DNA of 64,000 bases. It comes from Mycoplasma crocodyli MP145 (GTDB lineage Bacteria > Bacillota_I > Bacilli_A > Mycoplasmatales > Metamycoplasmataceae). A program made the position numbers and the translations under genes. The stretch covers positions 382,099 to 446,098 of the forward strand of contig NC_014014.1 of assembly GCF_000025845.1 (NCBI RefSeq), in the 5' to 3' direction. The notes below the pieces were generated by a model. It searched no databases and was not told where the DNA came from. It saw only the letters and a program-made list of their open reading frames with translations. Positions 10,683 through 41,024 of this stretch are shown here, piece after piece. How positions within the stretch are numbered: position 1 is the first letter of the stretch; each line of letters opens with the position of its first letter.

Positions 10683-10689
10683 GAGAAAC

Positions 10690-11817: not shown

Positions 11818-11828
11818 AAAGGAGCATT

Positions 11829-12824: not shown

Positions 12825-12832
12825 GATAAAAT

Positions 12833-15604
12833 ATGCCAAGAGTAAAATCAACTAATACAGCTACGCCACAGGCAAAAAGAACAACAACAAGAGCTAAAAA
12901 ACCGACTCTTGTTAATGATGAAAAACTAAATTTAATGAGCATAAGAACTAATCCAAGAAATGTAGTACAAAGTAAAAGAGATAAAAGAAATCTATCTAAA
13001 TTAACTAATGAAGCTAGAAATAAAAACCAAGTTTCAAATAGATTTGATAGAAACGATTCACCTTATATTGAAAGTGCCCCACGTGCACAAGTTAATAGAC
13101 TTGCTCGTAAGGAATTTGATCAAGAAAAAGATTATAAACCAGTCAAACCAGCTAGAAAACCTAGAACAACTAAAACTTCTAGCACGCCTAGAAAACCTAG
13201 AACAACTAGAACAACAACTCCTAAAGAAGTTAAACCTAGAAAACCTAGAACAACTAAAACAACAACTCCTAAAGAGATTAAACCTAGAAAACCTAGAACT
13301 TTAAAAGCAATTTCTGAAACACCAAAAAGAAAAAAAGTTGTTACAACAATTTTGAAAGATCCTCAAGCATATTTTACTGATAGTCCACTTCCAATTGTTG
13401 AACAATTAAATGAAGAACTAACTAGAGAAAAATTACCTAACCCAAGAGCTTATTTTACATCAAGCCCCTTACCAATAGATTTTTCTGAAAAAAGATATGT
13501 CCCAAATTTCGAATTTGTTGAGGAAAAACCAATAATTAACCAACCTGAACAAATTATTCAAGAACCAAAAGAAATAACAAGAGAAAAATTACCTAACCCA
13601 AGAGCTTATTTTACATCAAGCCCTTTACCAATAGATTTTTCGGTTATAAGAGTTAAACCTACAATTGATAAACCAGAATATGTCTTTACTGAAACTCCTA
13701 AAGAAATTGTTGAAGAACAAATTATAGAAACTCATGGTTTGAAATCTAAAGATATTCATAATGAGTATATTAAAGACCCAGATCCTAAAATTATTACAAC
13801 AATTACTGAAACCATTAAAACAACAAAAACTATTACAACTATTACCGATATTATCAATAATGTTGAATTAGAATTAAAAGAAGACCAAATTAAAACTGAG
13901 ATTGATTTTAAGAAAAAACTTTCTGAAAATGAATTAGGTTTCGCTGAAGAAATTATTGAAGTTTCTGTTGAAGAATCAGGGTTTGAACGACTATTTCCTA
14001 AACCAATAAAATACCTTCATAGACCTGAGCCAAAGGACTTAATGGTAATGAGAGGTATTAAAAAAACAGGTTTTTTAACATCATTTGGAGATGGTATTCT
14101 GGCTTTCTTTAAAGGCATTTATAAACTTGGAAAGAAATTTACAAGATTAATAGGAATCAATAAAAATGCTACTGAAAACTTTGATTTTGATTACTACGTA
14201 GAAAATGCTCCTGTTGAATATGTTTTTGCAAAAAATAGAAAAGTTGTTGCTGAAATTAAAGATATTTATTTAACTTTTGCAAACCCAGCAAACCCAGCTG
14301 AAAAGAATTTAGTTCTTAGAGGTCCTTCCTTCAAAGTGTATGAAGGATGTATCCATGCTGTTATTGGTGAAAGTGGTTCTGGTAAATCAGTTATTACTTC
14401 ACTATTGTATGGACTTACTGGTTCGAATGCCATAATTGAAAGTGGTAGTGTAAAACTTTATGGTCTAGAAGTTCAAAACTTCAGTCTCAAACAATGAGAA
14501 AGATCAAAATTAAGAGGTAGAATAGTTTCAGCCGTATTCCAAAACCCTATGTCAATACTTGACCCAACCATGAAAGTTGGAGAGCAAATTATTGAAGGAA
14601 TGTTAATTAATAAAATTGTTAAAGGCAGAAAAGCAGCAAGATTAGAAGCTATAAAATACTTACAAATGACTAAAATCGGTAATCCCGAAAAAGTTATGAA
14701 ACTCTATCCACATGAACTTAGTGGTGGAATGATACAAAGAATTGCCCTTGCAGCCATAATTTCGCTTAAACCAAAATTATTAATTATGGATGAACCTACA
14801 ACAGCGCTTGACCCAACAGTTCAAGCTTTAGTTCTTGATATTATTAGAGAATTACAAGCTGAATTTAAAATTGCAACCATTTTTATAACTCATGACTTAG
14901 GAGTTGTTGCTTCTATTGCTGATTATATCAACATAATGTATGCTGGTCAAATAGTTGAAAGCGGTACAAAGGAAGAAATTTTAATGAATCCTCAACATCC
15001 TTATACATGAGGTTTAATTGTTTCGATGCCTGATTTTAATAAAAATAGTAGACTTCAAGTAATAAGAGGAGCAGTTCCATCTAACCTTAATAATATTGTA
15101 GGTGATGCTTTTGCAGTTAGAAATGATTATGCACTAGCTAGAGATTTTGAAGTGCAACCTGATTACTATCAAATTAGTTCAACACATTTTGTTAAAAGTG
15201 CACTACTTGATGAATTAGCTCCAACTTATCAACCGCCTCATATTATTAAAACATTATGAGAAAAATATAATGCTTATTTGCATAAATTATATGGTAAAAA
15301 TATTTTAGTTACTAGAAATGAGTATGAACACTATAAAGCATTAGCAAAAGAACATAACGAGATTGTCATTGAGTTAAAAGCTGAATATGAACCGTTAAGC
15401 ATCGAAAACTCTAAGGATAATGAAGATGATTTTAAAGTTTATAACACAAATGAAGAAGTAATTAAGGATAAAATCAAACCAGAAGATAATATTGAAAAGC
15501 AAATAGAACTTATCAAAGAAGTTTCTACCAATTCAACTTATTCAAAGGATAAAAAGAATTTAAATAAGAAAAATAAAAAGTCTAAAGGAGTAATTCATGG
15601 ATAA
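12833..15604 (+). CDS. oppD: OppD oligopeptide transporter ATPase with long repeat-rich N-terminal extension
   Basis: The ABC ATPase core spans about residues 472-735 of 923. It has Walker A GESGSGKS near residue 512, signature LSGGMIQR, Walker B LLIMDEPTTALDP and switch His in FITHDLG. A typical OppD has about 330 residues. Here roughly 470 residues come first. They are very basic at the start (PRKPRTT-type repeats encoded by 48-bp units), then hold two near-identical PNPRAYFTSSPLPIDFS repeats and a looser third copy, then an acidic and then amphipathic stretch before the ATPase. A further ~190 charged residues follow the ATPase. The role of these extensions is unknown. The ATPase function, powering peptide uptake with OppF, is secure. 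Confidence 0.92.
13148..13310 (+). repeat. In-frame tandem repeat inside oppD (PRKPRTT units, 48-bp period)
   Basis: Four successive copies of a segment beginning CCTAGAAAACCTAGAAC occur, most spaced 48 bases apart, encoding PRKPRT followed by Thr/Lys-rich linkers. The period is a multiple of three, so copy changes keep the frame. The encoded segment is strongly basic. Confidence 0.9.
13424..13641 (+). repeat. 62-bp direct repeat pair inside oppD
   Basis: The 62 bases at 13424-13485 recur at 13580-13641 with a single C/T difference. They encode REKLPNPRAYFTSSPLPIDF. A more diverged third version lies near 13359-13400 (DPQAYFTDSPLPI). The spacing of 156 bases keeps the reading frame. Confidence 0.9.
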
Positions 15605-19153: not shown

Positions 19154-22100
19154 TTAAGCTTGATTTTTTCTTTTTTTACCTATTAATAATAGTAGTACTA
19201 TTATAGCTCCTATACCACTTGCAAAAGTACATGTTCATAAAATAATGTCTTTTGTTGTTCAATTGGTTTTTAATAAGTCTTCGATTTTTTGGAATTCAAG
19301 TAATTCAGAATTATATTCTGGTGAATTATATGATGTTGATTTTTGAATTTGTTCACGTTTTTTATCAAGTTCTTTTTTGAATCTTGCATAAGCTTTTTTA
19401 CTGTAATCTTGACTTTTGTGTTCATCTTCAATTTGATTTAATTTACTTAGTAATCCTTCTTTAAAGGTTCTTAATAGTAAGTTTATTTTTGCTATTTCAT
19501 CACTGAAGTTTGAAGCTTGAGCTTTATCAATTTGTTTGTGTCTATTAATATCACTTAATAGTACTTCAAGATTTTCCTTGAATTCTTCTACTGAACTAAT
19601 TGTATATTCATCAAAATTCTTTTCAGTTTCTGCTTTAATGTATCTATTTAATCAATCCTTATTTGTTTCAAGAGTTGAAACGGCATCATTCATTTTTTTG
19701 TTCATTTCAGCATATTCAGCTTTTGTGAATCCAGGAGTTTTATTATCAATTTCAGATTTAATAGTTTTAAATATTTCATCAAACTTAATAACAGAAGGTC
19801 TTGTGTAAAATTCTTCTTTAATGCTCGTGTTTAGTTTGTTGTATGTATTTAATAATTCTTCTTTATTAGGAATTAGAATTTTTTCTTTTACTATCTTAGC
19901 TGTATTTTTAAATTCATCAAGTTTAGCTTTAGCAACTGATGATGTTTTTTGAATTCTTTCTTTATATGCAACTATATCTTTTAAGAATTTTTGTGTTGAA
20001 GGAGTTGTATATAAATCATAATTATCATTAAGAACTTTATCAATTTCTGCAAGTAAAGCATCTTTATTGTTTGATAATATACCATCTAAATTAATTATAT
20101 CATCAGCTAATTTATTATGCTTATCTCACTTGATTACAGGGTTATCAGTAATTTCATTGCTAATTCTATTTGCTTCTTTATTAAATGCATCTTGTATATC
20201 TTGTGTATATTGAGATTTATTAACTTCAAATTTAGCTCTTGCATCTTTTAGTAAATTAGTAAGGTTTGTTTTATTAGTGATTAAATTATCTTTTAACTTG
20301 TTAATTTTATCGTTTCATTCAGGTAATTTTGCTTGTTTAAATATTTCTTTATCAGATGTATTTATTTGATCTTCTAGTTCTGCAACTTTTTTATAGAATT
20401 GAGCAACTGAATCAACGGTATATTCTTGCTCTTTATCACTATTTAACTTTTCAGCTTTTACTTTAGTTAATAAATCAGTTTTGTTGGTTACTAATTCAGC
20501 TATTAATTTATCTGATTCAGCTTTTATAACGTTAAATTGTTCGTTTGTAACATCACCTAGTGCATCGATTTTTGTTTTGAGAGCGGCAAGACCGGTGTTA
20601 AATTGGGTTACACTTGCACTTGTGTGGATATCAAGATTAATTCCATCAAGCAAGGTTTTTAACTCGTTTAATACATCTTTGTTAGATTTAATGTTATTTT
20701 CTTTGTCTGTAATTTGTGCTACTAGACTTGTATATCTATCTAATGGTAATGAAGTATTGTTATCAAAACTTTTATCTAAATCATCCAAGTATTTTTTAAA
20801 GTCAGCAACAGCTTCAGGGCTTTTTGTAGGATAATCAGTTTTTTGTTTTTGCTCAATAAATTCTTTTAACATTTGTAGATTTGTTTTTAGCAACTTATTA
20901 GAGTCATCAATTTGTTTTTCATAATCATCATTCTTAGGTTTATCGATTTCATCATCTGCTAATATTGCTGTCTTTAATCTTTCAAGTTCTTTTAGATAAG
21001 CAGTTGTAGATGCTGGATTACTTGATGCTGCATCAACTTTTTTAAGAAGTTCGATTTTATTTATTAATGATTTTTGATATGTTTCAAGTAATTTTTCAAC
21101 TTCGTTTAATTTAGCTACATAATCATCATATTTAGGTGAATCAACTGATGTTACTTCTAGTCCTTTTATTTCATTTACTAATTCTTCAAGTTTAGGGTTG
21201 AATTTAGTTATTGAGTTTTCAGTGATAAATTTATTTACCTTTGCTTTTACTTCATCTGCTTTTGATAGTAATTTATCTTTATTTGTTTTTAGTTTAGCCA
21301 CTTCTTGATTTATTTTAGATATGTCTTCATTGTAATCTGCTAAAAGATAAGGTGAAGTTGTTTTGTCTACTTTCTTATAAATTTCATCTAGTTTAGCATT
21401 TACTTCTTTTACACTATCGATTGTATGGTAATCTTTACCTGCATTTTTAGCTTCTCTTACTTTTTCAAGTAGAGCTGTTTTGTATAGTTTAAGTTTGTCA
21501 TGTGCACTTTGTATTTTTTCTTTAATTTCTAATACATGAGCTCCTGTAATAGGATCAATTGAAGTATATTCATTTCTTATTGAATTAACTGCTTCTTTAT
21601 ATTTTTCAACTGATGTAGTTGTATAACTCGTTAATTTCGAATCATCAAGTGCATCAGTAAATAAGGCATCTATAACTTTTTTATTTGTTTCAACATTACT
21701 TAATAATTTATTTAATGTTTCTTTATCGGTTGTATATTGAGTTAATTTGTAGTCATCTTCTTTTTTAGGTTCAATTTCTGTTTTTAAAGCATTAATATCA
21801 GCTAATAATTTATCTTTAGCTTGGTTTGTAAGTGATGAATAATCTGCATTAAGTGCAAGTTGTATCTCTTGTTGAATTTTTGATTTATGAGTTTGCAAGT
21901 CAGATAATATTGCTTGGTCAATTTTTTGTTTAAACTCTTCATATTTAGCTTTTGAAAGTGGTTTAAGTTCATTTTCGATTGCTCTATTAATTCTATCTAG
22001 TTCAGTTATGAGTTTATCTCTTGATTCGCTTGTGAATTTATCATTATCTTTATTAGCTGCTTTAACATCTTCTAGATATTTTAATGTATCTTTTTCAAAG

Positions 22101-25100
22101 TTAGATAATTTAGCATGTGCAGCACTTATTTTATCAGCTATTGCTTTATAATCTGCACTTGTTGCATTAGGTTTAGCGTCTATTTCTGATTTAATTGTAG
22201 CCATAGTAGTATTAAATTCAGCTAATTCAATAGGTGAATAGTTTGCAACATTAGTTGTTGAATCGCTCATTGTAGAAGCGTGTAATTCAAGTAATTTTTG
22301 TTGGTTTTTAACAAGTCTGTTTTTAAGGTCATCAATAGCTTTTAAGTTTTCTGTTTGTTTAGTATTGATTAAAGTTGTTTCTAGATTTGCTGGATCATTT
22401 AAGAAAGCTTCATGCGTTGTAATTTTAGCTTGGTATTCTTCTCATGATTCAGTTGTATATATATTTTCAATAATTTTAGCTTCTTGAAGTTTTTGAAGTA
22501 AAACACTCTTACATGTTACAAATTTTTCTTTAGCTTTATTTAATTTTTCTTGTGCTTCTATTAATTCACCATCACTAAAAGTAGTTTTATCTTTATATTC
22601 GTTTTCGATTGTTGCTATTTGAGCATTATATAAAGAAATCGATTCTGTTGTATATATATCAGTTTTTAATTTTTTAGCATTATTTAGTGCTTCATCATAT
22701 AAAGTTTTATTTGTTTTTTGAGTTTTTAGTTCTGCCTCAAGATTTGTAAACTCTTGTTTTATTCTTTCATAAGTTTCTTTGTCAAGTGAAGGTAAAGTCT
22801 CTACTTCAGCTTTTTTAGCATTAACAAAATCATTTCATCTTTGAGTTGTTGATGTTGGGTATCCATCAAAGGTTTTTACTTTTTCAACCGTATCTATATG
22901 GTTAAGCAAGTCCTCTTTTCATGTTTTGAGGTTTTTTTCAAGTCCATTTAGTGTGTTAAGATATATTTCGTATTTTGGATCATTTATTTCGTTATCTGAT
23001 GTAATTGTATTTTTAAATGCTTCTACAGCTGATTTATATCCATTTTCCGATAAATCTGTGTATTTAGTAAAATCTTTTGTAGTTACTTCAGTAATTTTTA
23101 ATAAAAGTAAATCTTTATTAGATTTAAGGAGTTTTTTCTCTTCATCCACCTTATTTCTATAATCTTCATCTTTTTGTCCATCTATTTCAGATTCCCCTTG
23201 AACTTGAGCAAGAAGTGCCTGTAATTTAGCACCTACAACGATTTTGATTTGTCCATTGTGATATTCTAGTGTATTAACTGAATTGATTTCACTTTGAATA
23301 TATTTTATAAGTGCTTGTTGTTTTGTTTCGAGTTTAGAAATTTCTTGTTCCAATTTAGTTAATGATGTATCATACTCATTTTTTTTGATAGCCGTTGTTC
23401 CAGTTGCTAATGCTACTTGTTCATTCAATATTGTTTGATATTGATTTCATGTAGTAATAGTATAGTAATCAGCTGTTTTTAAGTCTTTAATTTTATTTGC
23501 TATAGCTAATTTCAATGCTTTATTATATGTTTCTAATAATTCGATGGCTTTATCAATTTCTATAATTTGTGCTAGCAATTCATCTTTAGTTATCAATGCT
23601 TTACCGGTATGGTATTGAGCTCTTAATTCAGCAATTTTGTTTTTATATGTCAATGTGCTTTCTAATGTATAAATATCAGTAGCTTTTGTTAATGCCATTG
23701 TTAAATGCTCATCAAGCTCAGAAAGATTTGTTTTTCTAGAAGTTTTATAGTTTTCTAATTTATTTATAATGGTTGTTGCTTGAGCCCTTTTTATTGTTTC
23801 TTTATCAATTAAATTTTGTGATTCTTTATTTAATTCCTCAATATATTTGTTAGTAGATTCAAGTGTAAAAGAGTCTAAGTTTTCATTTTTTAAAACACTT
23901 ATTTTATCATTTATGTATTTTTTGTTGGTAATTAAATGAGATTTTAATGATTCTTTGAGTGTTTTAATTTGATTAAATTCAGCTAAGTCTACCACAGGAG
24001 CGGGTGTTAATAAGTACTTATCAAAAGCTGCTTTATGAGCATTATCATAAATTGTAAATGATTCCAATGTATAAATATCAGAGTCTAATGTTTTATTAAT
24101 AATTTCTTTTGCTTCATTAATGTAGTTTGCTTTTGTAGGCAATGCAGCATTTAATCTAAAAACATAATTTGTTGCTTCATTTTTTCCAATCGTTTCTTTG
24201 GGATCCATTTCAGATTTAATAGTTTCAAGCGCAGTTTTAGCTTCAGTAATTTGTGCTGGAGAAAAACCTCCGCTATTTAATGATAATTTGTTTGCTTCAT
24301 ACAAATCGTTAAGCATCTTTTTATTAGTTTCAAGTTTAGATTTTCAAGTTTCTATCTTAGCTTTTTCACTTGATAATTCAATTCTTGTTATTGTACTTTT
24401 TGAATTAATAACATTTTCTAAATCTATCAAGTTATTATCAATTGTGTTTGTTGTTTCTGCTGTGTATTGATCTTTATTTTCACTTTTAACAGTTGTTATT
24501 TTTGTTTTTAATTCTTTTATACAAGTGTGTTCATCAACAATTGATTTTAATGATTCTAATTGATTTAATAAAGCATCTAATTCAGCTTTTGTAAAATTAG
24601 TTTTTGTAGCATTTGATGCTTTAATCGCTTCAACTTTAGTTTTGAAATCATTGAATTCCGCTTCTTTATATTCTTGTTCGTTTAAAGCTAAAAGTTCAGT
24701 TATTTTCTTATCAAGGATTGATTTATTTGATACTAAAACTTTTGTTTGTAATTCTGCAATTTTAGCAAGAGCAGCAGCATGAATTGTTGTAGTTATCTTG
24801 TCTTCGTTTTGTGATTCTATTGATGATTTGTATTCATTTAATTGTTTGTTAAGTTCAATTTTAGAAGCTTCTGTATAATTTAAATCAGGATTATTAATTG
24901 CTTCGTTGATTTTTGCAATAATATCCATTTTATTTCTCAATAAAACACTTTTAGTATCATTAATTTTTGATATTAAATCATTATATTTTGCTTCATCAAT
25001 GTTTATGGTTTCATCAATTTTACCCTTTATATCTGTACCATTCAACTTTGTTGTATATGTTCCATATGAATCTGTAGTATAGGTATCTTTATCGACTAAC

Positions 25101-28100
25101 TCAAGAGCTGATGCTAACTTGTCCTGTAAAGATTTTTGTCTAGAAATTATTGCTTTTTCAAGTGTTTCATATTGAGTTTTGTATGAATTATATTGATCAA
25201 CATTAATATCATTATTTGATTGAATTTGTGATTTCAATTGTGTTATTTTTGATTTGAAATCAGCAACCGAATCATTCATATGATAAGGGAAATTCTTACC
25301 TTCAAATTCAGTTAATTTTTCAATTAAAATTGATTGATATGTTTTAAGTTTTGAAGTTGCATTGTTAATTTTTTGATCATATTCATTTCTTTTTGCTTGA
25401 TTAATTTCCGTTGCATTTTTAAGAGTTATTTCATTCTTTAAATTGTTTAAATATTCTTCAAAAGCAGCGATGCTTGATGCTTCATATTTATATTTTTCAG
25501 ATAAATTTTTCTTGGCATCAATATTTGATATCAATTTATCCCTATTTGTAATTAATGATTTCTTAGCGTTTTCAATTTGCTCTATATGTGTTGCATATTG
25601 AACGTCAGTTAAATCATTTAAAAGTGAAACTTGTGTTTTTATTTCTTCGATTTTTTGTTTTGTAGTAGCAACACTGGCTGCATCATATTCTTCAAAAGTA
25701 TTTGTTAATACTTCATTAAGTTTTTTATCAAGTGAATCTTTATTACTTTCTAACAATGAATTTGTAGCAGCAATTTCAGCGCTTTTTGTTTGATAATCAG
25801 ATTTAAGTAATTCAGAACCTGAATCAATAGCGTTCTTTAGTTCTTCAAGTTTGTTTACATATTTTGTTTCACTATCTTGTGTATATTTATCAAAATCTTT
25901 TGATTTAGCAGCGATTATTTCTTTAATAAGTTGTGCCTTGTATGTTAATAATAAGTCTTCTTTGCTTTTGATTATAGTTTGTAAAGCATCAAATTCTATT
26001 TTTGAGTATGTTGATTTTGTGGTAATTTCATTTTTTAAGGTTTCTAATTCGTTTCTAAATTTTGTTACATCTGCTTCTACATAGTTTAATTTAGCATCAG
26101 CTATTTTTTGTTCTAATAGAGCAATAGCGTCTTCTAAATAGTTTTGTGCATTGCCAAAAGCACTTGCCAATTGTGATAAGTCAGTTTCTAATTCAGTCTG
26201 TGTTATTGATATGCTATTATTATTTGCCTTATTTTCTTTTTCGGTTAATAAAGCTTCAATTTTTGCTTTTTGTTTTGCTGATACTTTATCACCTAAAGCA
26301 GTTAGTTGAACATTATAAGATTTTACTTTTTCAAGTAGAGCTTGATTATTTGTTTTCGGTGTTACTAAGACATTAATTTTAGCTTTTTCTGTATCAAGAT
26401 TAGATATATTAAATTGTTTTGTAGGATCATTAATGTCGGTTTCTAGCTGATTGAATTTATTTTTGTGATCTTGTGCTGATGTTTTTTCGTATATATCATA
26501 GTTATCAATCTTTTTCTTGTTGAGTTCTTCTTTAAGGATGTTTCTAATTGATGTTTTTTCAAGGTCATCTAATATTTTATTTAGTTCTAATTTAGCAGCA
26601 GCAAGTTGTTCAGAAGTTAGATTTTGTTTATCATATTTTTTATCCAATTCAATTAGAGCAGCTTTATATACGTTTTCACCATCTACTGTATAGTTATTGA
26701 AGTCTATAGTTGTAATTAGTTTCTTGTATTCTGATCAATTAGTTACCAGTTGTGCTTCTAGTGCTTTAATTTGGTTTGAATATGTGGTAAAACTAGGTTT
26801 AAATATTTTTTCATTTTTCTTAATTGATTCAACTATTTTATCTAATTCGGCTTTATATTTAGCTTTTGATTCTGTTGTGTATTTTTGATCTTGTCCTAAT
26901 AATTTGGCTGTTTCAGCTTCGGCAAGAATTTGCTCCATATTAGTTTTTCTTAATTTAAGTGCTTCATTCAATTTGGTTGAAAGTTCATCATAAATTATTT
27001 TATTGAATTTATCATCTGCAGTCGAACTACCTTTTGTTTTGATGTTGTTAAATTCGTTTTTATATGCAGTAGTTGATTCAACAGTAAATTCATCTAAATT
27101 TTCTTTTTCCTTAGCTGTTATTTGATTTTCAAATGATTTTTTATATGTAATTAAATTGCTTGATTTACTTGAGTTGATTTGATTGATGTAATTTTCGTAT
27201 TTGCTAGTTTCTACTTCTCCACCATTTTGTATCATTGTTTTCAAAGTTCTTAATTCGGTTTTAAATTTTTCTACACCTTCAGGTAAATATAAAGCATGAG
27301 CATCACCTAGCATAGTGTCGATATCATCTAATAATTTATTCTTATTTGATACTAAAATATCAGTTTTAATTCTATTGATTTCAACCCTATAACTTTCATA
27401 TTTAGCTTTTGCTTGTGCACCTTGTAATGAGTCAGAAAATTGTGTGTTAACATCATTTTCTAATTTTGTTAATGCAGCTTGGTGTGCATTTTTAGAATCT
27501 TGAGTATAAAATTCAGGATTTTTTACATAAATTAAAGCTATTTCTTGTTTTAGATATTGTTTTCAAGTTTTGAGTAAAGCATTCAATGAATTTGCTTTTG
27601 TTTCATATTGAGTTACTTCTATTCTTGTAACATTTTCTTTACCTGTTACTTCTTGAATTAATTCATTAATTTTAGTTTTATATTCATCTAGTGATGAAGG
27701 GTGAAAATTATCAAAACTTGCAGTAAGTCTTGTTTGTAAATCTTTTAGTACAACCGATTTATTTGTCACAAGTTTATCTTTTATTTTTTTAATATCATTC
27801 ATTACTTGTTTGTAAACACTTAGTTGCTCTGAAACCTTAATTCCATTTTTGTCAGTTGTTTCAACGATATTGATATTGCTGTCAATTCATCCTTGAATTT
27901 GTTGTTTTTTGTTATTTATTTCTTGTGTTGTTTTATCATAAGATTGTTTTGTATAGAAATCAGAATCTTTAATCAATTGATTAGCTGCGTCATAATATTC
28001 TGAGTTTGTTGTTGAACCAAAAACTCTTATTTCAACAATTGACACATTGTTATAAGTTCATGTAGGTTTACTTCATTGATTAAAAACAAAAGAAATTCTT

Positions 28101-28588
28101 CTAACATTTTTAGCTGTTTCATTAAACTGATAGTTAATAAGACCATAATTACCAGATCCGTAACCAGATTTTAAAGACTTAGCATCTTTTATAAGTTTTT
28201 CACTTGAATCATACAATCTTACATCCATATTGAGAATGTGATTATACTCAAATACTAAATCTAAACCTCTGACATCAACATCTTCCTTAAATTTTAATTC
28301 AAATCTATAATTATCTCCCCCGAATGAATTATCTATATGGGTTGATGCTCATCTTGAAAACATATTAAATGAAACACCATCTATTGCTTTTTCTGGTGTT
28401 TTATCTGATTCGCTTGTAAAACCATAAATACTTGCAGTAGTTCCTTTTGATGCTAAAGCAAGGTTTATGTTTTTATGTTCTGTTGTTGTATCTTCAGTGT
28501 AAGCTACAGAAAGTGTACTTGCAACAGCAGTTATACTTGCTGTACTAGCAGTTAGCAAAATAACTGATTTTTTATTAATTTTTTTCAT
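19154..28588 (-). CDS. Giant surface protein 1: signal peptide, F5/8 type C (discoidin-like) head, FIVAR-like repeats, C-terminal anchor
   Basis: One frame of 3144 codons is open throughout (TGA = Trp). It has a KK-led signal peptide without a lipobox Cys (about residues 1-30), then a domain of ~150 residues that reads like an F5/8 type C/CBM32 module: NLALASKGTTAS, PEKAIDG, SRWAS, ending NNVSIVEIRVFG. The rest is a chain of roughly 35-40 helical repeats of about 70-80 residues. These recur around Y-T-x-x-S-x-x-x-Y-x-x-x-L and end in L-x-x-N-K-x-x-L, resembling FIVAR modules. A final membrane helix (ASGIGAIIVLLLLIG) and KKRKNQA tail anchor it. The likely role is a long adhesive fibre binding host glycans. 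This is inference; no homologue is recognised by name. Confidence 0.82.
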
Positions 28589-29069
28589 TTTATATACCTC
28601 AATTTTTATATATTTAATAATTATATATTTTTATATATATGAAAATAAATAATAGATTTTTTACATTTTTACTTAAAAATGCTTTTTTAATAGATAAATT
28701 AGGTTTAAATTTATTTTTATTGTTTTTTTATAAAGAAGATTTTTTGTTTTGAAAAGTAAAATGTTAAAATCACATTTTTTCATCTTTTTTTTCATTATTA
28801 ATACATAGTATTAACAAAAAATTCCATTTTTAACTAAGTTGCTCTTTATAGTTTATTTTAAATTCGCTTGAATTTTTATCATATGCTTATAGTGTTTAAT
28901 ATAATCCTAAAAATAGGTGATTTAGGAGATTGCTTATAACTAGAACTTAACTATTTTATTAAAGGTAAAACAAAGTTAAGTAGCGATATAATGAAAGATT
29001 ATTGGTGCATATCTTCAAATTTTCATTAACTTTATCTTCTTTCAAAGTTTTTTAGATAATTAGATGTTT
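28589..29069. promoter_or_regulatory. Intergenic region between the two giant genes
   Basis: Positions 28589-28800 are the leader and promoter region of giant gene 1, with a PyTATATA-rich stretch and a version of the element found upstream of gene 2 (TATATGAAAATAAATAAT). Beyond 28800 there is no recognisable gene. TATAAT at about 28899 and a small inverted repeat (ACTTAAC / GTTAAGT near 28946-28980) are visible on the + strand ahead of the hairpin at 29070. A short untranslated transcript is possible but unproven. Confidence 0.4.
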
Positions 29070-29102
29070 AAAAAATCCCTAGATTGATCTAAGGATTTTT
29101 TT
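29070..29102. terminator. Terminator of giant gene 2
   Basis: AAAAAATCCCTAGA pairs with TCTAAGGATTTTTT (one mismatch) around TTGA. It closely matches the terminator of giant gene 1 at 19092-19134, showing that the duplicated unit includes its 3' flank. Confidence 0.85.
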
Positions 29103-29136
29103 GTTGTATGTTATTTTTTTATTTAATAATTAAACA

Positions 29137-32100
29137 TTAGCTTTTTCTTTTTTTGGCTATTAATAATAGTAAAACTACTATAGCTCCAATTCCGCTAGCA
29201 AAAGCACCTGTTCATACAAGAATATCTTTTGGTGTTCATTTATTTTTTAATAAGTCTTCTATTTTTTTGAATTTCAATAATTCTGAATCATATTCTGGTG
29301 AAGTATATGAGGTTGATTTATTAATTTCATCACGTTTTTTGTCAAGTTCTCTTTTGAATCTTGTATAGGCTCTTTTATTGTAATCTTTACTTTGATGTTG
29401 ATTATCAATTTGATTTATTTTGCTTAACAATCCTTCTTTAAATGTTCTTAGTAGATGGTTTGCTTTGGTTATTTCATCAGAGTAGTTTGAAGCTTGTGTT
29501 TTATCAACGTTTTCATTTTTATTGATATCTGTTAATAATGATTTTAAATTTTCTTTATAGGTATTAACCGATTCGTTGGTGTATTCATCAAATTTCTTAT
29601 TAGTTTCTGCTTCAATATATTTGTTTAATCAATCTTTGTTTGTTTCAAGAATTGCAACAGCACCATTCATTTTTTTGATCATTTCTTCGTATTCGGCTTT
29701 TGTAAATCCTGGATTTTTATTATCAATTTCAGGCTTAATAGCTTTAAGCATTTGATCAAATTTGATTACAGAAGGTCTTGTATAAAATTCTTCTTTGATA
29801 GTATTATTAAATTCATTGTATTTATTTAATAATTCTGTTTTGTTTGGCATTAAAACACTTTCTTTTGCCGATTTTGCTGAACTAACAAATTCATCAAATT
29901 TAACCTTAGCAATAGATGTCATTTTTTGAACTTTTTCTTTATATGCAGCTATATCTTTCAGCAACTGTTCTGTTGAAGAAGCGGTGTATAAGTCATAATT
30001 ATCATTAAGGATTTTATCTATTTCAGCCAGTAAAGCATCTTTATTATTTGATAGTATACCATCAAGATTAATAATGTCATCCGCTATTGTTTTATGCATA
30101 TCTCACTTGATTACAGGGTTTTTGGTAATTTCTGATTCAATTCTATTTGCTTCTTTACTATATGCATCTTGTATTTCTTTTGAGTATTTAGATTTGTTAG
30201 TTTCAAATTTTTCTTTTTCTTCTTTTAGAAGTCTTGTAAGGTCAGCATTATTAGTGATTAAACTCTCTTTTAACTTGTTAATTTTGTCATTTCATGTACT
30301 TAATTCAGTTTGTTTGAATACTTCTTCCTTATTGTTATTAATTTCTTTTTCTAGTTCCTCAACTTTTCTATAGAATTGTGAAATTGAAGCGGTTGTATAT
30401 TCTTGCTCTTTACCGTTGTTCATTTTTTGTGCTTGAACTTTATTCAATAAATCAGTTTTGTTCGTTACTAAAACAGCCATTAATTTATCGAATTTAGATT
30501 TAAGAGCATTGAATTGTTCGTTTGTAGCATCTTCTAAAGTACTAATTTCATTTTTAAAACTTACAACTCCTGTGTTAAAGACTGATACACTATCGCTTGT
30601 ATAGATATCATGATTAATTCCATCTAGCATTGCACTTAATTCACTCAATGCTTCCTTGTTGGATTTAATCTTGCTTTCTTTGTCTGAAATCTCTGCTAAC
30701 AATTCATTGTATCTATCGTTTGATAATGTTGTATTTTTATCTAAAGTTTTGTCTAATTCTTCCAAGTACTTCTTAAAGTTATCAACCGCCTCTGAACTTT
30801 TTGTAGGATAATCTGCTTTTTGTTTTTGATTAATTAATTCTTTTAACATTTGAACATTTGTTTTAAGTAATTTGTTAGCATCTGTAATTTGTTTCTCATA
30901 TTGATCGTTCTTAGACTTATCTATTTTATCATCAGCTAATATTAAAGCTCTTAATTTATCTAATTCTGCAACATATTCAGTTGAAGAAGCAGGGTTATTT
31001 GTAGCTGCATCAACTTTTTTTAGAAGATCAATTTTTTTAGTTAATGATTCTTGATATGTTTCAAGTAGTTTCTTAACTTCGTTTAGTTTAGCCATATATT
31101 CATTATATTTTGATAAATTTATTGTTTTTTCATCCAAACCGTTAATTTCATTTATTAATTCTTGAATTTTAGGATTGAATTGAGCTAATGAATTTTCTGT
31201 GATAAAAGCATTTACTTTATCTTTTATTTCTGTTGCATTTGTTATAAGTTTTGATTTATTTGTTTTTAGTTTCGCTACTTCTTCTGCAATTTTTGCAATA
31301 TCATCATTGAAGTTTGTTACAAGATAAGGTGTAGTTGTTTCATTAACTTTCTTGTAAATTTTCTCAAGTTCAGCAAATACGGATTTTACACTTTCATCAG
31401 CATAATAATCTTTATTAGAGTTTTGTTCTTCTCTCACCTTCTTTAACAGACTTGTTTTGTATAATTCAAGATTCTTTTTTGCACCATTTATTTTATTTTT
31501 AATTTCTAATACATGTGCAACTGTAATTGGCTTAATTGAACTATATTCATTTTTAATTGAGTTAATTGTTGCTTTGTAAGAACTAACTGATTCACTTGTA
31601 TACTCAGTTAGTTTTGGATCGTTTATTTCACTTAAAAATAAGTCATCTATTACTTTTTTATTTGTTTCCACCTTATTTAATAATTGAGTTAATGTTTCTT
31701 TATCTTTTGCATATTCAGGTTTTTTATAATCGATTTCATTTTTAGTTTTAATTGAAGTTTCTAAATCGGTTATTTCTTTTAATAATTTATTTTTTGCTTC
31801 AATTGTAAGTTCTGAATAATCGGCTTTAAGTGCAAGTTTAATTTCATCTTGTATTTTTGCTTGATAAGTTAAAATTGAATCTTCTTTATTTTTGATTTTT
31901 ACTTTTAAATCTTCGAATTCTATTTTTGAGTATGTATCTTTTGATGTTATACCTGTTTTTAGACTCTCTAATTCAGTTTTAAATTTAACAACATCACTTT
32001 CTACACGGTTTATTTTTTCTTCTGCTATTTTTTCTGTTAATAATGTAATAGCATCTTCTTTAAAGTTTTGTATGTTACCAAAAACTTTTGATAATTCTAA

Positions 32101-34515
32101 TAAATGTGTTTCTAGTTCGGATTGTGTTACTTGTTTTGTTTTGTCATTTCCTAAAGTCTCTTTATTGGTTAATAAAGATTCTATTTTAGCCTTTTCTTTT
32201 GTAGAAACTTCTGTTCCTAATTTTGTTAGTTCAGTTCTATAAGCATTTACTTTTTCAATTAAAAATTCATTATTTGTTTTAGGTGATGCTAAATTAGTTA
32301 TTTTAGATTTTTCAGTATCAAAATTGGTTCTATTAAATTGGTTTGCACTATTATTTAAATTGTTTTCTAATTCATTGTATTTATTTTCATATGATTGCGC
32401 AGACTCTTTTTCATATTTATTGTAATCAGTTATTTTCTTTGATTTCAGTTGTTCTTTAAGAACGTTTCTAATTAATGTTTTTTCTAGTTTAGCGAAAATT
32501 ATGTTGTATTCTGATTTAGCTGTTTCAAACTCATTAGCAGTTAACGCTTCTTTATCATACTTATTGTTTAAAGTATTTAATTCTAATTTATATGAAATTT
32601 CACCATCTTCAGTATAAATTTGAAAATCATTTAATGAAATTATAGATTTGTATTGAGATTGATTAGTTACTAAAAGTGATTTTAAATTGTTAAGTTTATT
32701 TGTATATTCTATAAAACTTATTTTAGAAATTTTTTCGGTTTCATTTATTGATTTAATGATTTTATCCAATTCGACTTTATACTTAGCTTTTGAATCGATT
32801 GTATATTTTGGATCTTTTCCTAATACATCAAATGAAGCAACATTAGCCAAAATTTGAATTTTATTAGATTTTTGTAATTTAACAGCTTCTCCAAGTTCTT
32901 TTATAAAATTATCTGAAACCTGTTTATTGAATTGATCATCGACATAAGAAATGATTTTAGATTTTATAGCATTTATTTTTATTGTATATTCGTTAGTCGA
33001 TTCAACAGTGAATTCATCTAAATTTTCACTCAATTTTGTATCTATTTGTTCTTTTAATCACTTTTTATAAGTAATTAAATTATTTGATTTACTTAAAGAA
33101 ATTTGTTCCTTATATTCATCATATTGACTTATATCAACATATTGACTTTGTGTGATTTTTGTTTTTAAATCGTTCAAATCTTTTTTATAATTATTAGCAC
33201 CAAAAGGTATGAATAAATCAAAATTTTCACGTAATAAAATGTCTATTTCACTTATTAATTGTTCTCTATTTGTCTTTAAAATTGTTGTTTTTATTCTTAT
33301 GATCTCGGCTTTAAAGTGTTCATACATAGCCTTAGCTTCTGAACCTTTTAATGTATCTGGAAATTGTGCATTAACATCACTTTTTAATTTTGAATACTCT
33401 TCATTATATTTAGTTTTAGAATTTGCAGTATATAATTCAGGAAATTCAATTTTAATTCTTGAAATTTCTTCGTTTAAATACTCTTTTCAATTTTTTAATT
33501 GAGAATTCAATAAATCGGCTTTATTTTGATAATCTTTAACTTCTGATCTTTTAATATTACCTTTTACATTTACTTCATTCATTAATTCACCAAGTTTTGT
33601 TTTGTATTCACTCAATGATGAAGGATGAATATCATTAGAATTTAGATTTTGTTTTGACAATAAATAATTTAAAACTACTACCTTGTTTGATATAAGTTTA
33701 TCCTTAATATTTTTTATATCATTCATAACTCTATTATAATCACCTAATTGTTCTGTGGTCTTAATTCCGTTTTTATCTGCTTCTTGTTCGATATTAGTAT
33801 TACTATTTATTCAACCTTGTATTTCATTCTTTTTATTGTTTATTTCTTGTAATGTAGAATCATACGTTTCTTTTGTATAATATTCTAAATCCTTAGTTAG
33901 TTGATTCACTTCATCATAATATTCTGCATTTATTGTTGAACCAAAAACTCTTAACTCATATATAGATAAATAATTAAAATATCCTGTTATATGGTTTCAT
34001 TTATTAAAAATCAAAGAAACTTTTCTAACGTTTTTTATCGTTTCGGGAAATTGATAATTTATAAGTCCATAATCTCCGTTCCCTTGTCTAGTATGAAGTG
34101 ATTTAACTTCCTTAATGATAGATCCGCTTGAATTATAAAGTTGAATATCCATATTAAGAATGTGATTAGATGAAAATACTAAATCAAGCGCTCTAACGTC
34201 ATAGTCATTGTTAAAATGTAATTCAAATTTATAATTGGCTCCACCTACTATATTTCTGTTCATATCGCTCGATATTCATCTATAATCATTGTTAAAAGAT
34301 ACTCCATCAATTGCTTTTTCCGGATTCGATCCACCCCTGTTACTAAAACCGGAAATAGTTGCTCTCGTTCCGTTTCTAGCTAGTGCAAGGTTTACACTTT
34401 GGCGCTCTGTTGCCGTGTTTGTTGTGTAACTTACTGATAGTCCACTTAAAATGGAAGTAATAGCTATTGTGCTTGAAGCAAGCAAAATACTTCCTTTTTT
34501 ATTAATTCTTTTCAT
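29137..34515 (-). CDS. Giant surface protein 2, paralogue of giant surface protein 1
   Basis: This frame of 1792 codons has the same architecture as its downstream neighbour. It has a signal peptide (MKRINKKGSILLASS...), an F5/8 type C-like head (NLALARNGTRAT, PEKAIDG, YRWISS, YLSIYELRVFG), about 19 FIVAR-like helical repeats, then a membrane helix (ASGIGAIVVLLLLIA) and KKRKS tail. Both ends align with giant protein 1 nearly block by block. The 4056-bp length difference corresponds to one internal repeat block present only in gene 1, with the junction near 31860. It was probably produced by tandem duplication. A surface adhesion or glycan-binding role is inferred from domain type and topology. 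Confidence 0.82.
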
Positions 34516-34590
34516 TTATATACCCCTTTTTTGTATGTTTTTTTATTATATAATTTTTTGTATATGAAAATAAATAATGAATTATTTACT

Positions 34591-34620
34591 TTTTTGCTTA
34601 AAAGTGGTTTTTTTGTAGAT
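34591..34620. repeat. 30-bp direct repeat, copy 1
   Basis: The segment beginning TTTTTGCTTAAAAGTGG and ending TTTTTTTGTAGAT is repeated without mismatch 122 bases further on. A diverged version lies upstream of giant gene 1 near 28666-28695. Confidence 0.9.
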
Positions 34621-34712
34621 AAAATAACATTAAAAAACCTTTTTTGTTTTTTATAGATAACTTTTTTTATTTTTTCAAATTTAAAAAGTTTAAAAGCGTG
34701 TATTTTTCATCA

Positions 34713-34742
34713 TTTTTGCTTAAAAGTGGTTTTTTTGTAGAT
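34713..34742. repeat. 30-bp direct repeat, copy 2
   Basis: Identical to copy 1. It may be a second regulatory site or the residue of another duplicated promoter. Confidence 0.9.
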
Positions 34743-34895: not shown

Positions 34896-36557
34896 TTATC
34901 CTATAACTAAGTCATCTTCTATATAACTATATCTATTAAAGTAATTCTTTTTTCTGCCTCAAACAAGTAGAGTTGAAGATACGCCAAATTGTCCGATAAA
35001 CATTAAAAGTAAGATAACAATTATACTTGCAGTATTCAATTCTTTAGTTAATCCAGTTGATAAACCAGTGGTTCCAAAGGCACTTGATACTTCGAACATA
35101 ATGTGCTCAATTCCGTAGTTTCTCATACCAATATATTTATCTACTGAATAATAAGAGTTGATTGATCCGCCGTGAATATCAAATGATGAAACGCTTATTA
35201 GACTTATTATCATGAGGAGTGATATTGATATTAATGTGACTTGAAAAGCCATTTTAACAGTATTTTTATTAATTGTTCTTTTAAAAGCAACAACTTCTTT
35301 TCTACCTAGCATTCTATTAACCAAACTCATTATTATAATAGCAAATGTAGTTGTTCTAATTCCTCCACCAGTTGATGATGGGGCAGCACCAATAAACATA
35401 GCCATTGTAAAAGTAGCAATTGTTCCTGGGCTTAAATTTCACATATCTATTGTTGTAAAGCCAGCTGATCTAGTTGAAAAACTCGAGAATAATAAAGCAA
35501 ATAATTTAGAACCGGTAGAACCATACATTTGACCTAAATCAACATAAGGTTTTAAAACAGGATTATTTAGGTCAAATGTATTTAGTAATCTATCATCTTT
35601 GGGAATATAAACAAGATTTCAAAAAGATTCTTGATTAGTTGAAGTTATTTCAAAAATGAAACTAAATAGAAAGATAAAAATTAATACTCCAATATAACAA
35701 ATTAAAGACATTTTTGTAAATAAAGAAAAATGATATTTTGTCTTTTTTCTCGTTATTTTATGAATAATAAAATTACTTATATCATATAGTGTTGGGAATC
35801 CTAAACCACCAATGACTAATAGTAATATAAAAATTATTTGAATACCATAATTTAAGTAATAAGGCATCAATGAATTACCACCTATAATATCGAAACCTGC
35901 ATTATTTATTGCAGATATTACATGAAAAAAACCATATCTAAACGACAAAGATCAATTATTATAAGGAGAGATGTAATTGTTATTAATGTATTCTTTGATC
36001 CCTTCTGTTGTTTGTGGAGGAACATAGTAGAAATAAAAAGACAATAATAGTCCAAAAAGCAAGATGCAAAACAATAAAAATTTAACTGATGTTATTACTA
36101 ATTTTGCAGTTTCATTTATTTTTATTCCACCACGCTCAGTATTAACTAAATTAATCTCACTTAACGAAATACTTTTCTTTCTAAGTATCCAATTTATAAT
36201 GAATATTTTTATTGTAAATATACCTATACCGCCAAGCAAAATAAGTATTGCTATTATAGCTTGGCCAAACATGTTTCAATGTTTAAAAGTGTCAACAACC
36301 ACTAATCCTGTGTCGCTAAATGCAGACGAAGTTGTAAATAAAGCTCCTATATATGAGATTCTATCTATCTTTTCGATCGATCCATTCATCTCAAAAGTTG
36401 TATTTTGAGTTCATGGACTTCATAAAAATAATGATGAAATTATCACTACAATAAAATAAATTAATAAAATGTATTTTATCTTTGATACATTTTGTCTTCA
36501 ATTTTTCATTTTATAATATATTTTATAAATAAAAGAATCTCTTAATTTTCTCTTCAT
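34896..36557 (-). CDS. ktrB: Potassium uptake transporter, TrkH/KtrB family
   Basis: This integral membrane K+ (Na+-coupled) transporter has 553 residues. All four selectivity-filter loops of the superfamily are visible in order: SSAFSDTGL, ISAINNAGFD, PSSTGGGIRT and SSAFGTTGLST. Many hydrophobic segments lie between them. I place the start at a minus-strand ATG preceded by AGGAA, which gives MKRKLRDSF and a first helix (YILLIYFIVVIISSLFLW). Later ATGs would remove the first pore loop. KtrB normally works with a cytoplasmic KtrA/TrkA nucleotide-binding regulator, and none is encoded in this window. It is a single gene with its own terminator. Confidence 0.92.
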
Positions 36558-38654: not shown

Positions 38655-38694
38655 TTAAAAATCAAGCCCATTTAATGAGCTTGATTTTTAAAAT
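38655..38694. terminator. Bidirectional terminator between tsf and the convergent coiled-coil gene
   Basis: AAAAATCAAGC pairs with GCTTGATTTTT around an 11-base loop. It overlaps the last codons of the minus-strand gene and has T-runs on both sides. Confidence 0.88.
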
Positions 38695-41024
38695 TCAAAA
38701 TTTTTAAAAATTGTATTGAATAATTCCATTATTTCTTTTACTTGTTCTTTTGTTTCTCTTGAAAATTTAGAATTATCAAAATTTCTTAAATTAATTCCAT
38801 ATGAATCAGACGGTACTATGTTCTTGTCTTTCTCATTTAAGATAAAATTGACTTTTTCTTCTAATTTTTCTTTAAATGTTTTAATCATGTTCTTTTGTTT
38901 GCTAATAATTTTATTCAATTCTTGAATCTGATTGATTAAATCATCATATAAAAGATTTTTATCTCTATTAAATTCATTTATTTTTCTTTTTTCATTTTCC
39001 AATTTTTCATAATCACTTCTATATTTATAAATTTTCTCATCTAACCTTTTCTTATAATTTAGAAAATCTTCCAATGTACTTCCATTTGTATTTGCTAATT
39101 CTTTTCTAAAAATAATTTTTAGTTCGTTTTCTATTTGTTCTTTATAAATAGAAATATCTTGTAATGTTTCTTGATTAAAATCTTCAAGCATTTTATCGCT
39201 TATTTTAATCTCAATATTTGTCAATTGATTTAGGAACAAGTTGTTATATTCCATAATATCCATATAAGCAAAATATTTTGATTTTAATTCTGCGCTTTGC
39301 TTATCATTTTCATCAATTTTATTTTGAAAATCTTTATCAACTAATATATAGGCACTTAAACCTTGTTCAGCAGCTTGAATGTTTTTATTTTTTACATCAA
39401 GTAATTTGATGTCTTCTTTAAGATCTTCAACCATTCTATCTATAAGGTCTTGAAGTCCTGGCCTATCTTCAAAATCCATTGATACATACATTCCTTTAAT
39501 TGTTGCATCTTGACTTTCTATATCGCTTTGAAGTAATAACGCTTCCTTTTTTAGGTTATTAATGCTTACCAATTTATCTACTTTTTCATTACTTTTACTA
39601 TTAAAATTAAACATAATGTTTAATGAATTGTTTTCAATTACATTAATTTGTTCATGCAATTCATTTATATAAAGAGATTTATCACTAACCCTTACCATTT
39701 TAGTATTAAGATAAATTAATATATCACTATATTTTTCTTCGGATTTAATTAGAAATTCTTCAATTTTTAAACGATCTTTTTCGATTTTACCATTGTTGTC
39801 TTCAATATATTTTAATAAGCTATTAATTTTTTCATTAATAATAATTTCATCTTCATTTTTTATAACGGTGAGATGTTTTGAATATGTTGCTTTTTTGTTA
39901 ATTAACATTGTTTTAACTATCAACTGTTTCTTATAAAATTCTAAGAATTTAATTTCGAAAAACTTTGCACTCTCTTCAGAGTCAAATTCCTTATTGATTA
40001 ATAAATTAATTTTATTTAAGTTTTCTAATTCATTGTATAAATGATAATTTTGATAATCATTTAAACTCTTTTGGATGTTTATACTATCTTTTTGAAATGA
40101 TAGTAATTCTTTTTTCTTCTTTAATTGAGTTTCTTCTTCTAATAATTTATGAAACAAATATTTTGTTTCGGTTAATGAGATACTTAGTAATTCATTATTT
40201 GAATTAATAAAATTATTTATTAAATCCATATGTTCATCTATAACTCTTGTTTGAACAAAATTGTTAAATTGATTGTTCAACTCATTAATATCATTATTAT
40301 TTTGAATTAATTTATTTATAGATTTTACTCAATATTCAATTATTATTTTAGATGTTTCCTTATCTTTTTTTATTGTTTCTAACTTGGTTAATAATTCAGA
40401 TAATTTTTTATTCTTCTCTTTTATTCTTCCTGAAAAGACATCGATTAACTTTTTATATTTTTCCTCTTTTTCATTACCTTTTTCTTTATTAGTTTCAAAT
40501 ATCAAATTGGCCATTAGAACGTTTTCTTGCTTTAATAAAATCAAATTATTTACAAACTCTATATTAAATTCTTTAATGGTTTTATTATTTTTATTTAATT
40601 CTATTCGCTTTAGATCTATTGCCTTAATATTATCATTAATTTTATTAACTTCTCTTACATCTGTTTTACTAATATTATTGTTTTCTATTATTAACTCTCT
40701 TGAGTTATTAAAAGATTTTTCAAGTTGTTTAGAAAAATTTTTTAATAATGTTACTTTTTTATCAATTTTAATATTAGTATCAAGATCTACTGTTCCATCT
40801 TTATTTTTAGACACTTCCTTTACTAAAGGTTTAGTTTCTTCAATTGCTGCATGATTTATAACTCTACTTTTTGTACTTTTATTAAGAGTTGCTTCCTTAT
40901 TTGACTTGTCTATAGACTTTTTGTCCTTTTTAGTGACTATTATACTTGTTGCTACTATACAAGCGGTAGCAGCCATACCTATTGTACAAGCACCAAGTAT
41001 TAATATCTTCTTTTTTCTATTCAT
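38688..41024 (-). CDS. Membrane-anchored coiled-coil protein, unrecognised
   Basis: This 778-residue product has one hydrophobic segment near the N-terminus (ILILGACTIGMAATACIVATSIIV) preceded by RKKK. After that it is almost entirely Lys/Glu/Asn/Leu-rich helix with heptad-like spacing and no recognisable enzyme motif. The N-terminal segment contains LGAC and ATAC, but neither is at a convincing lipobox position, so I favour an uncleaved anchor. The start is firm: GGAGGT precedes the ATG. One TGA near 40329 encodes Trp, and reading it as stop would wrongly split the gene. It is a single gene. A role in adhesion or cell scaffolding is possible, but nothing in the sequence proves it. Confidence 0.8.

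What the first reader, a model, noticed from the sequence alone, without database searches (positions are those of the whole stretch)
19154..34515. Tandem giant surface fibres: discoidin/CBM32-like head on dozens of FIVAR-like helical repeats
Two neighbouring genes encode 3144- and 1792-residue proteins with a signal peptide, an N-terminal F5/8 type C-like domain (NLAL..., PEKAIDG, RWAS/RWIS, VEIRVFG/YELRVFG), long arrays of ~70-80-residue helical modules, and a C-terminal membrane helix with KKRK. Together they fill almost a quarter of the window. F5/8 C and FIVAR modules co-occur in Gram-positive glycan-binding proteins. Here the catalytic part is absent and the stalk is enormous, suggesting a glycan-recognising fibre or adhesin on a wall-less cell. 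I recognise no named mycoplasma family with this exact layout.
Basis: partly seen in the sequence, partly recalled or inferred. Interest (0 to 1): 0.75.

Follow-up and report, generated by a model that had tools for sequence, protein, structure and literature searches.

The report
Giant lectin-tipped mycoplasma surface fibres
Two neighbouring mycoplasma genes encode very long membrane-anchored surface proteins, each with a sugar-binding-type head on a stalk of 43 or 23 small helical bundles, which looks like an adhesin design known from Gram-positive bacteria rebuilt for a wall-less cell.

Summary
Both genes are intact under code 4 and encode 3144 aa (359 kDa) and 1792 aa (207 kDa). The stalk is 43 and 23 modules with a median period of 67 aa. 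The genes are tandem duplicates; the larger carries one extra block of 1351 aa (20 modules). The head is not recognised by Pfam F5_F8, but four tests place it in the F5/8 type C (CBM32-like) fold: profile-profile comparison with 39 mycoplasma F5/8 domains (94%, reversed controls <1%), a mycoplasma F5/8 HMM, profile hits to CBM32 paralogues, and an AlphaFold model matching CBM47/CBM32 lectins. Modules are confidently predicted three-helix bundles. The nearest solved structures are the Ebh/Embp repeats and alpha C protein, but Pfam FIVAR and DUF1542 are not met. The same stalk-plus-anchor carries GH20 enzymes and a catalytic-free double-CBM32 protein elsewhere in this genome. Three divergent members occur in one sister genome and in none of 59 other congeners; the window locus is an empty site in the sister. 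Most likely a tip-lectin surface fibre or adhesin: a new variant of the CBM-headed helical-stalk design (Epf/AsaA, Embp) with a transmembrane anchor. Glycan binding is untested.

The parts
19154..28588 (-). P1, 3144 aa surface fibre gene (table 4)
28502..28588 (-). P1 residues 1-29: K-rich n-region and hydrophobic segment (signal peptide or signal anchor); possible SVA|Y cleavage site
   Evidence: sequence; inference
28010..28471 (-). P1 residues 40-193: F5/8 type C (CBM32-like) fold head
19259..28009 (-). P1 residues 194-3110: stalk of 43 three-helix modules, median period 67 aa
21881..25933 (-). P1 residues 886-2236: 1351 aa (20 modules) absent from P2; P1 and P2 are collinear on both sides
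19178..19246 (-). P1 residues 3115-3137: C-terminal transmembrane helix
   Evidence: hydropathy
19157..19177 (-). P1 residues 3138-3144: basic cytoplasmic tail KKRKNQA
29137..34515 (-). P2, 1792 aa surface fibre gene (table 4), tandem paralogue of P1
34429..34515 (-). P2 residues 1-29: signal peptide or signal anchor
   Evidence: inference
33934..34398 (-). P2 residues 40-194: F5/8-fold head, about 58% identical to the P1 head
29239..33933 (-). P2 residues 195-1759: stalk of 23 modules
29155..29223 (-). P2 residues 1765-1787: C-terminal transmembrane helix
29140..29154 (-). P2 residues 1788-1792: basic tail KKRKS
28582..28790 (-). upstream region of P1, 77% identical over 213 columns to that of P2; each gene appears to have its own promoter
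34509..34717 (-). upstream region of P2, homologous to that of P1
19077..19130 (-). terminator-like inverted repeat plus T-run after P1
29049..29102 (-). terminator-like inverted repeat plus T-run after P2, 83% identical to that after P1
18780..19025 (+). small YneF/UPF0154-like membrane protein (name from memory); left border of the insertion
34896..36557 (-). TrkH; right border of the insertion. In sister genome G248 the orthologues of the border genes adjoin without P1/P2

Best explanation
P1 and P2 are type-I membrane-anchored surface fibres. After export the N-terminal head, an F5/8 type C fold domain of the CBM32 kind, sits at the outer tip. A string of 43 (P1) or 23 (P2) three-helix bundles forms an extended stalk, and one C-terminal helix with a basic tail holds the protein in the membrane of this wall-less bacterium. 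The head most likely binds a host or matrix glycan, so the proteins act as adhesins presented clear of the surface coat. From Embp F-repeats (170 aa, two bundles, about 7 nm) I estimate stalks of about 150 nm and 80 nm if extended. The two genes arose by tandem duplication of a promoter-gene-terminator cassette. They differ in length by one block of 20 modules, so stalk length changes in whole modules. The same stalk-plus-anchor carries GH20 enzymes elsewhere in the genome, so it is a general display device. Supported by calculation: head fold, bundle fold, duplication, block difference, paralogue architectures, empty site in the sister genome. Inferred: surface exposure, orientation, lengths. 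Untested: ligand and adhesion.
For: ORFs, membrane helix and modules. Head fold: hhalign of five family heads against 39 mycoplasma F5/8 domains gives 94.1%, E 1.3e-7; reversed controls 0.2% and 0.4%. A mycoplasma F5/8 HMM hits P1 60-174 at E 1.9e-7 in a two-sequence search. The head profile finds CBM32 domains of own-genome paralogues at E 1.2e-8 and 4.8e-7. One family head hits PF00754 at E 0.0038. AlphaFold with no CBM32 in the alignment gives pLDDT 82; 183 PDB matches at E<=1e-3, top ones including a fucose-binding module, CBM32 and lectinolysin lectin domain. Stalk: pLDDT 94.6, three helices per module; nearest solved structures EbhA, BibA, Embp, alpha C protein. Paralogues: 2xF5/8 + GH20 + 3 modules + TM, and 2xF5/8 + 3-4 modules + TM. 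Sister members and empty site.
Against: No binding residues were identified and no ligand is known; F5/8 folds also bind lipids and proteins or serve as scaffolds. Pfam F5_F8 does not score either head. The stalk could itself be the binding part, as in Embp. Export, cleavage and surface exposure were not tested. Lengths are extrapolated from a different repeat. The head alignment used for folding had only five rows, and the five models ranged from pLDDT 60 to 82.
Confidence: 0.62

Rival explanations
1. Embp-like matrix binder: the helical modules themselves, in many weak copies, bind host matrix protein such as fibronectin, and the head is secondary.
For: Closest solved structures to the modules are EbhA and Embp. 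Embp F- and FG-repeats are each sufficient for fibronectin binding (PMC7587433).
Against: Modules average 22% identity with no conserved surface seen. The same modules in 3-4 copies tether GH20 enzymes, which suggests a spacer. FIVAR membership itself is not shown.
Confidence: 0.2
2. Surface shield or antigen-variation coat: the main role is steric, with stalk length masking the membrane, and the head matters little.
For: Members differ widely in module number (3 to 43), P1 and P2 differ by a 20-module block, and heads diverge to 17-24% identity between species.
Against: No recent module duplications (mean 22% identity) and no long simple-repeat tracts in P1/P2 or their upstream regions, so no sign of fast switching. 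The head fold is kept in family members of both species.
Confidence: 0.08
3. Gliding-machinery leg protein like Gli349 of Mycoplasma mobile, a long membrane-tethered protein that grips sialylated glycans.
For: Similar general idea (long flexible leg, glycan binding; PMC4937208 abstract).
Against: No motor-type genes were recognised among the window genes scanned; nearest relatives by profile and fold are Gram-positive stalk adhesins and CBMs. Gli349 was not compared directly here.
Confidence: 0.03
4. Remnant of a stalked glycosidase: the proteins derive from GH20-type enzymes that lost the catalytic domain and now only help hold substrate glycans for the tethered enzymes.
For: Own-genome GH20 enzymes share the F5/8 domain type, module and membrane anchor; the 677-aa neighbour is the same layout without GH20.
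Against: Heads are single and very divergent from the enzyme CBM32s. The long stalk has been kept and expanded. The direction of change was not tested with a tree.
Confidence: 0.07

Closest known systems
DUF1542-repeat adhesins (AsaA, Epf, SasC, MabA), PMC7846122
   Same: Secretion signal, N-terminal non-repeat head that can be CBM-like, long array of helical repeats, C-terminal anchor; AsaA is 3146 aa with 31 repeats.
   Different: Repeats are DUF1542 and the anchor (of AsaA) is LPxTG in a cell wall. Here DUF1542 does not match (hhalign 2%), the anchor is a membrane helix and the head is F5/8-fold.
Embp/Ebh giant FIVAR-GA proteins of staphylococci
   Same: Dozens of tandem three-helix bundles forming a rod; their repeats are among the nearest solved structures.
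   Different: No F5/8 head is described for Embp in the passages read (PMC7587433). Here Pfam FIVAR is not met and there are no GA modules.
CBM32/CBM47 lectin domains (F5/8 type C superfamily)
   Same: Same beta-sandwich fold; top PDB matches; profile match to mycoplasma F5/8 domains.
   Different: Below Pfam detection, single copy on a non-catalytic protein, ligand unknown.
Own-genome GH20 enzymes on the same stalk (L018:5337-9989, 10039-14781)
   Same: F5/8 domains, same modules, same type of membrane anchor.
   Different: Carry GH20 catalytic domains, two Pfam-recognised F5/8 domains and only about 3 modules.

Membership tests
F5/8 type C (CBM32-like) domain superfamily | Pfam PF00754 match above the curated cut-off | tested here: not met
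   No hit for P1 or P2; one of five family heads hits at E 0.0038
F5/8 type C (CBM32-like) domain superfamily | Significant profile homology to bona fide F5/8 domains | tested here: met
   hhalign 94.1%, E 1.3e-7, reversed controls <1%; HMM hit E 1.9e-7
F5/8 type C (CBM32-like) domain superfamily | Galactose-binding-like beta sandwich | tested here: met
   AF2 model and Foldseek, TM to target 0.57-0.77 for stand-alone CBM32/47 domains
F5/8 type C (CBM32-like) domain superfamily | Carbohydrate binding | not testable with these tools
   needs glycan array or ITC
FIVAR (PF07554) | Pfam match above the curated cut-off | tested here: not met
   own genome 0 matches, while 49 of 248 genomes of the order have one at E<=0.001; none among the top families for 15 triple-module segments
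FIVAR (PF07554) | Profile homology to FIVAR | tested here: inconclusive
   hhalign 23%, P 9e-4, in register, reversed controls 0.2-0.4%; falls to 4% with the wider module set
FIVAR (PF07554) | Three-helix bundle like the Embp/Ebh repeats | tested here: met
   pLDDT 94.6; top Foldseek match EbhA, probability 0.94 but E 0.035
DUF1542-repeat adhesins | DUF1542 repeats | tested here: not met
   own genome 0 matches; hhalign 2%
DUF1542-repeat adhesins | LPxTG sortase anchor | tested here: not met
   C-termini are TM helix + KKRKNQA/KKRKS
DUF1542-repeat adhesins | Unique N-terminal head plus long helical repeat stalk | tested here: met
Embp/Ebh | FIVAR-GA module pairs | tested here: not met
   no FIVAR or GA Pfam hit

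The most novel reading that the evidence does not exclude
A display system private to one small mycoplasma clade: one helical-bundle stalk plus membrane anchor carries interchangeable heads (F5/8 lectin, double CBM32, double CBM32 + GH20). Stalk length is changed in whole-module blocks, so lectins stand far out on long fibres while glycosidases stay close to the membrane on short ones: capture at a distance, digestion at the surface.
Probability: 0.35. Interest if true: 0.68.

Novelty: new variant of a known kind. Interest (0 to 1): 0.52.

Why it matters
Wall-less bacteria cannot use wall-anchored (sortase) fibres, yet this genome has a full-size counterpart held by one membrane helix, with a stalk family that current profile libraries miss. 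It gives a concrete, testable adhesin candidate in a reptile-type mycoplasma (species name from memory) and shows lectins and glycosidases sharing one tether. It also shows that domain libraries under-call both F5/8 heads and FIVAR-like stalks in mycoplasmas.

Tried and rejected
Pfam, NCBIfam and PDB sequence searches with whole proteins or the single head gave only chance hits (HlyD, gpW, WH_MCM3_C). Two scans of 84,980 GTDB genomes with the head and with the P1/P2 alignment found no relatives, so the family is either narrow or too divergent for that method; the genome search route then found the sister genome. An order-wide head profile gave two weak hits in another family (G194 E 1.6e-4, G209 E 7.5e-4), not pursued and not counted as members. 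A first hhalign against FIVAR used unoriented loci and was discarded, then repeated correctly. Recent tandem duplication of modules was sought and not found. Simple-repeat phase-variation tracts at the two genes were sought by motif and not found. DUF1542 was tested and rejected.

Full report
What is there. The window lies in a single-contig 934,379-base genome (G000:C1:382099-446098). From the size alone I recall Mycoplasma crocodyli MP145; this is memory, not a tool result. Under code 4 two genes on the minus strand, 19154-28588 (P1, 3144 aa, 359 kDa) and 29137-34515 (P2, 1792 aa, 207 kDa), are intact. Both start with a K-rich, hydrophobic segment without a lipobox cysteine and end with one strongly hydrophobic helix and a basic tail (KKRKNQA, KKRKS), the pattern of a type-I membrane protein by the positive-inside rule (inference).

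The stalk. An iterated HMM seeded on 11 C-terminal copies finds 43 modules in P1 and 23 in P2, tiling everything between head and membrane helix; the seed HMM finds nothing in 20 shuffles. Spacing is 63-73 aa with median 67, apart from an 83-residue first step and one split pair in P2. The consensus is KNFDEYTPESVNKYKTELNELKNEINKKTNITKAEYEEYKNKINKLKSKLKTNK plus a short first helix. Modules average 22% identity with no recent duplications. P1 and P2 align collinearly: P1 1-885 with P2 1-886 (54%), then P1 2237-3141 with P2 887-1791 (66%), so P1 has one extra block of 1351 aa, or 20 modules. AlphaFold of three modules with a 15-row alignment of window and paralogue segments gives pLDDT 94.6 and three helices per module. 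Nearest solved structures by fold include EbhA (E 0.035, probability 0.94), BibA and Embp, with alpha C protein lower. By sequence profile they are alpha C protein (E 0.0013) and Embp (E 0.006). No Foldseek match reached E 0.001, so this is consistent but weak. Pfam FIVAR does not match, and profile-profile comparison is suggestive at best (23%, P 9e-4; 4% with a wider set; reversed controls <0.5%). I call the modules FIVAR-like three-helix bundles, not FIVAR.

The head. Pfam F5_F8 does not score P1 or P2. Four results place it in that fold. A profile of five family heads matches 39 Pfam-found mycoplasma F5/8 domains at 94.1%, E 1.3e-7, against <1% for reversed controls. An HMM of those 39 domains hits P1 60-174 at E 1.9e-7 in a two-sequence search. 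The P1/P2 head profile finds the CBM32 domains of own-genome paralogues at E 1.2e-8 in the ORF set searched, and the five-row profile at 4.8e-7 in the whole genome. An AlphaFold model built without any CBM32 sequence (pLDDT 82) matches a fucose-binding module, CBM32s and the lectinolysin lectin domain, with 183 PDB chains at E<=0.001. The five heads keep W51, R78, W143 and E157 (numbering of the folded segment). The Glu in the terminal xExxxFG strand is where F5/8 domains usually coordinate a structural calcium (memory, not tested).

The family. Elsewhere in the same genome, L018 (838-857 kb) holds three tandem genes: 677 aa (two Pfam F5/8 domains, 3-4 of the same modules, TM, KKRR) and 1550 and 1580 aa (two F5/8, GH20, about 3 modules, TM, basic tail). 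L019/L059 (290-306 kb) and L058 (566-571 kb) hold long-stalk members, one with a recognisable head. One sister genome, G248 (same genus), has three divergent members (L056:10075-13383; L057:9159-9962 with 9947-12199; L057:12453-15443), heads at E 1e-13 to 2e-5. The other 59 genomes of the genus gave no match. Among 20 fetched F5/8 loci of other genomes, only one protein (L092) carried a few weak module hits.

The locus. In G248 the genes left of the window pair (oligopeptide transporter, M42 aminopeptidase 84%, a small YneF-like gene) run straight into TrkH (78%); the aminopeptidase-TrkH gap is 447 bp, against 16.2 kb here. P1 and P2 also share upstream regions (77% over 213 columns) and terminators (83% over 54 bp). 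So the pair arose by cassette duplication and is a clean presence/absence difference; which way it went was not tested.

How it most likely works. Exported, held by a C-terminal helix, with the F5/8 head at the far tip of a rod. Embp F-repeats of 170 aa with two bundles are about 7 nm (PMC7587433), so about 150 nm for P1 and 80 nm for P2 if extended (estimate). Given the fold, a glycan-binding adhesin is the most likely role; the ligand is unknown. That enzymes share the stalk argues the modules are mainly spacers, but Embp shows such modules can bind fibronectin themselves, so that rival stays open.

Known or new. The design resembles the DUF1542-repeat adhesins (AsaA, Epf; PMC7846122) and Embp/Ebh, but it fails their repeat-family and anchor tests. 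A library search for mycoplasma, discoidin and adhesin gave no paper on such a family by title and abstract; FIVAR proteins are mentioned for M. felis (PMC11004492). Verdict: new variant of a known kind.

Noticed in passing
L019:6204-11341 (G000:C1 about 296.2-301.3 kb): A long-stalk paralogue (1234 aa ORF) ends at an A-run and the reading continues in another frame to a normal C-terminus with TM helix: a frameshifted gene, sequencing error or slippage site.
   Followed up: partly
L057:9159-9962 and 9947-12199 (G248): Sister-genome member with head and stalk in different frames, again a frameshift at the head-stalk border.
   Followed up: partly
window 1531-7818 (+): 2095-aa protein at the head of an oligopeptide ABC transporter operon, no Pfam hit, only 29% identical over the aligned part to its 1727-aa sister counterpart, while downstream transporter genes are mostly 54-69% (OppA 37%).
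   Followed up: no
window 38688-41024 (-): 778-aa protein with no Pfam hit, 24% identical to its positional counterpart in G248 although most flanking genes are 58-92% identical; likely fast-evolving surface protein.
   Followed up: no
G002, G024, G040, G045, G066 (family f3, genus g10): Whole-genome scatter of short ORFs of roughly 200-330 aa carrying FIVAR matches, often two per ORF; looks like a large paralogous FIVAR surface-protein family.
   Followed up: no
G212:C15:3341-9448: A mycoplasma with about 20 or more tandem DUF1542 repeats.
   Followed up: no
L017:3940-9822 and 10019-13936; L016:7717-11709: Further own-genome proteins with 2-4 F5/8 domains and no stalk modules (other likely glycan-active proteins).
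   Followed up: no
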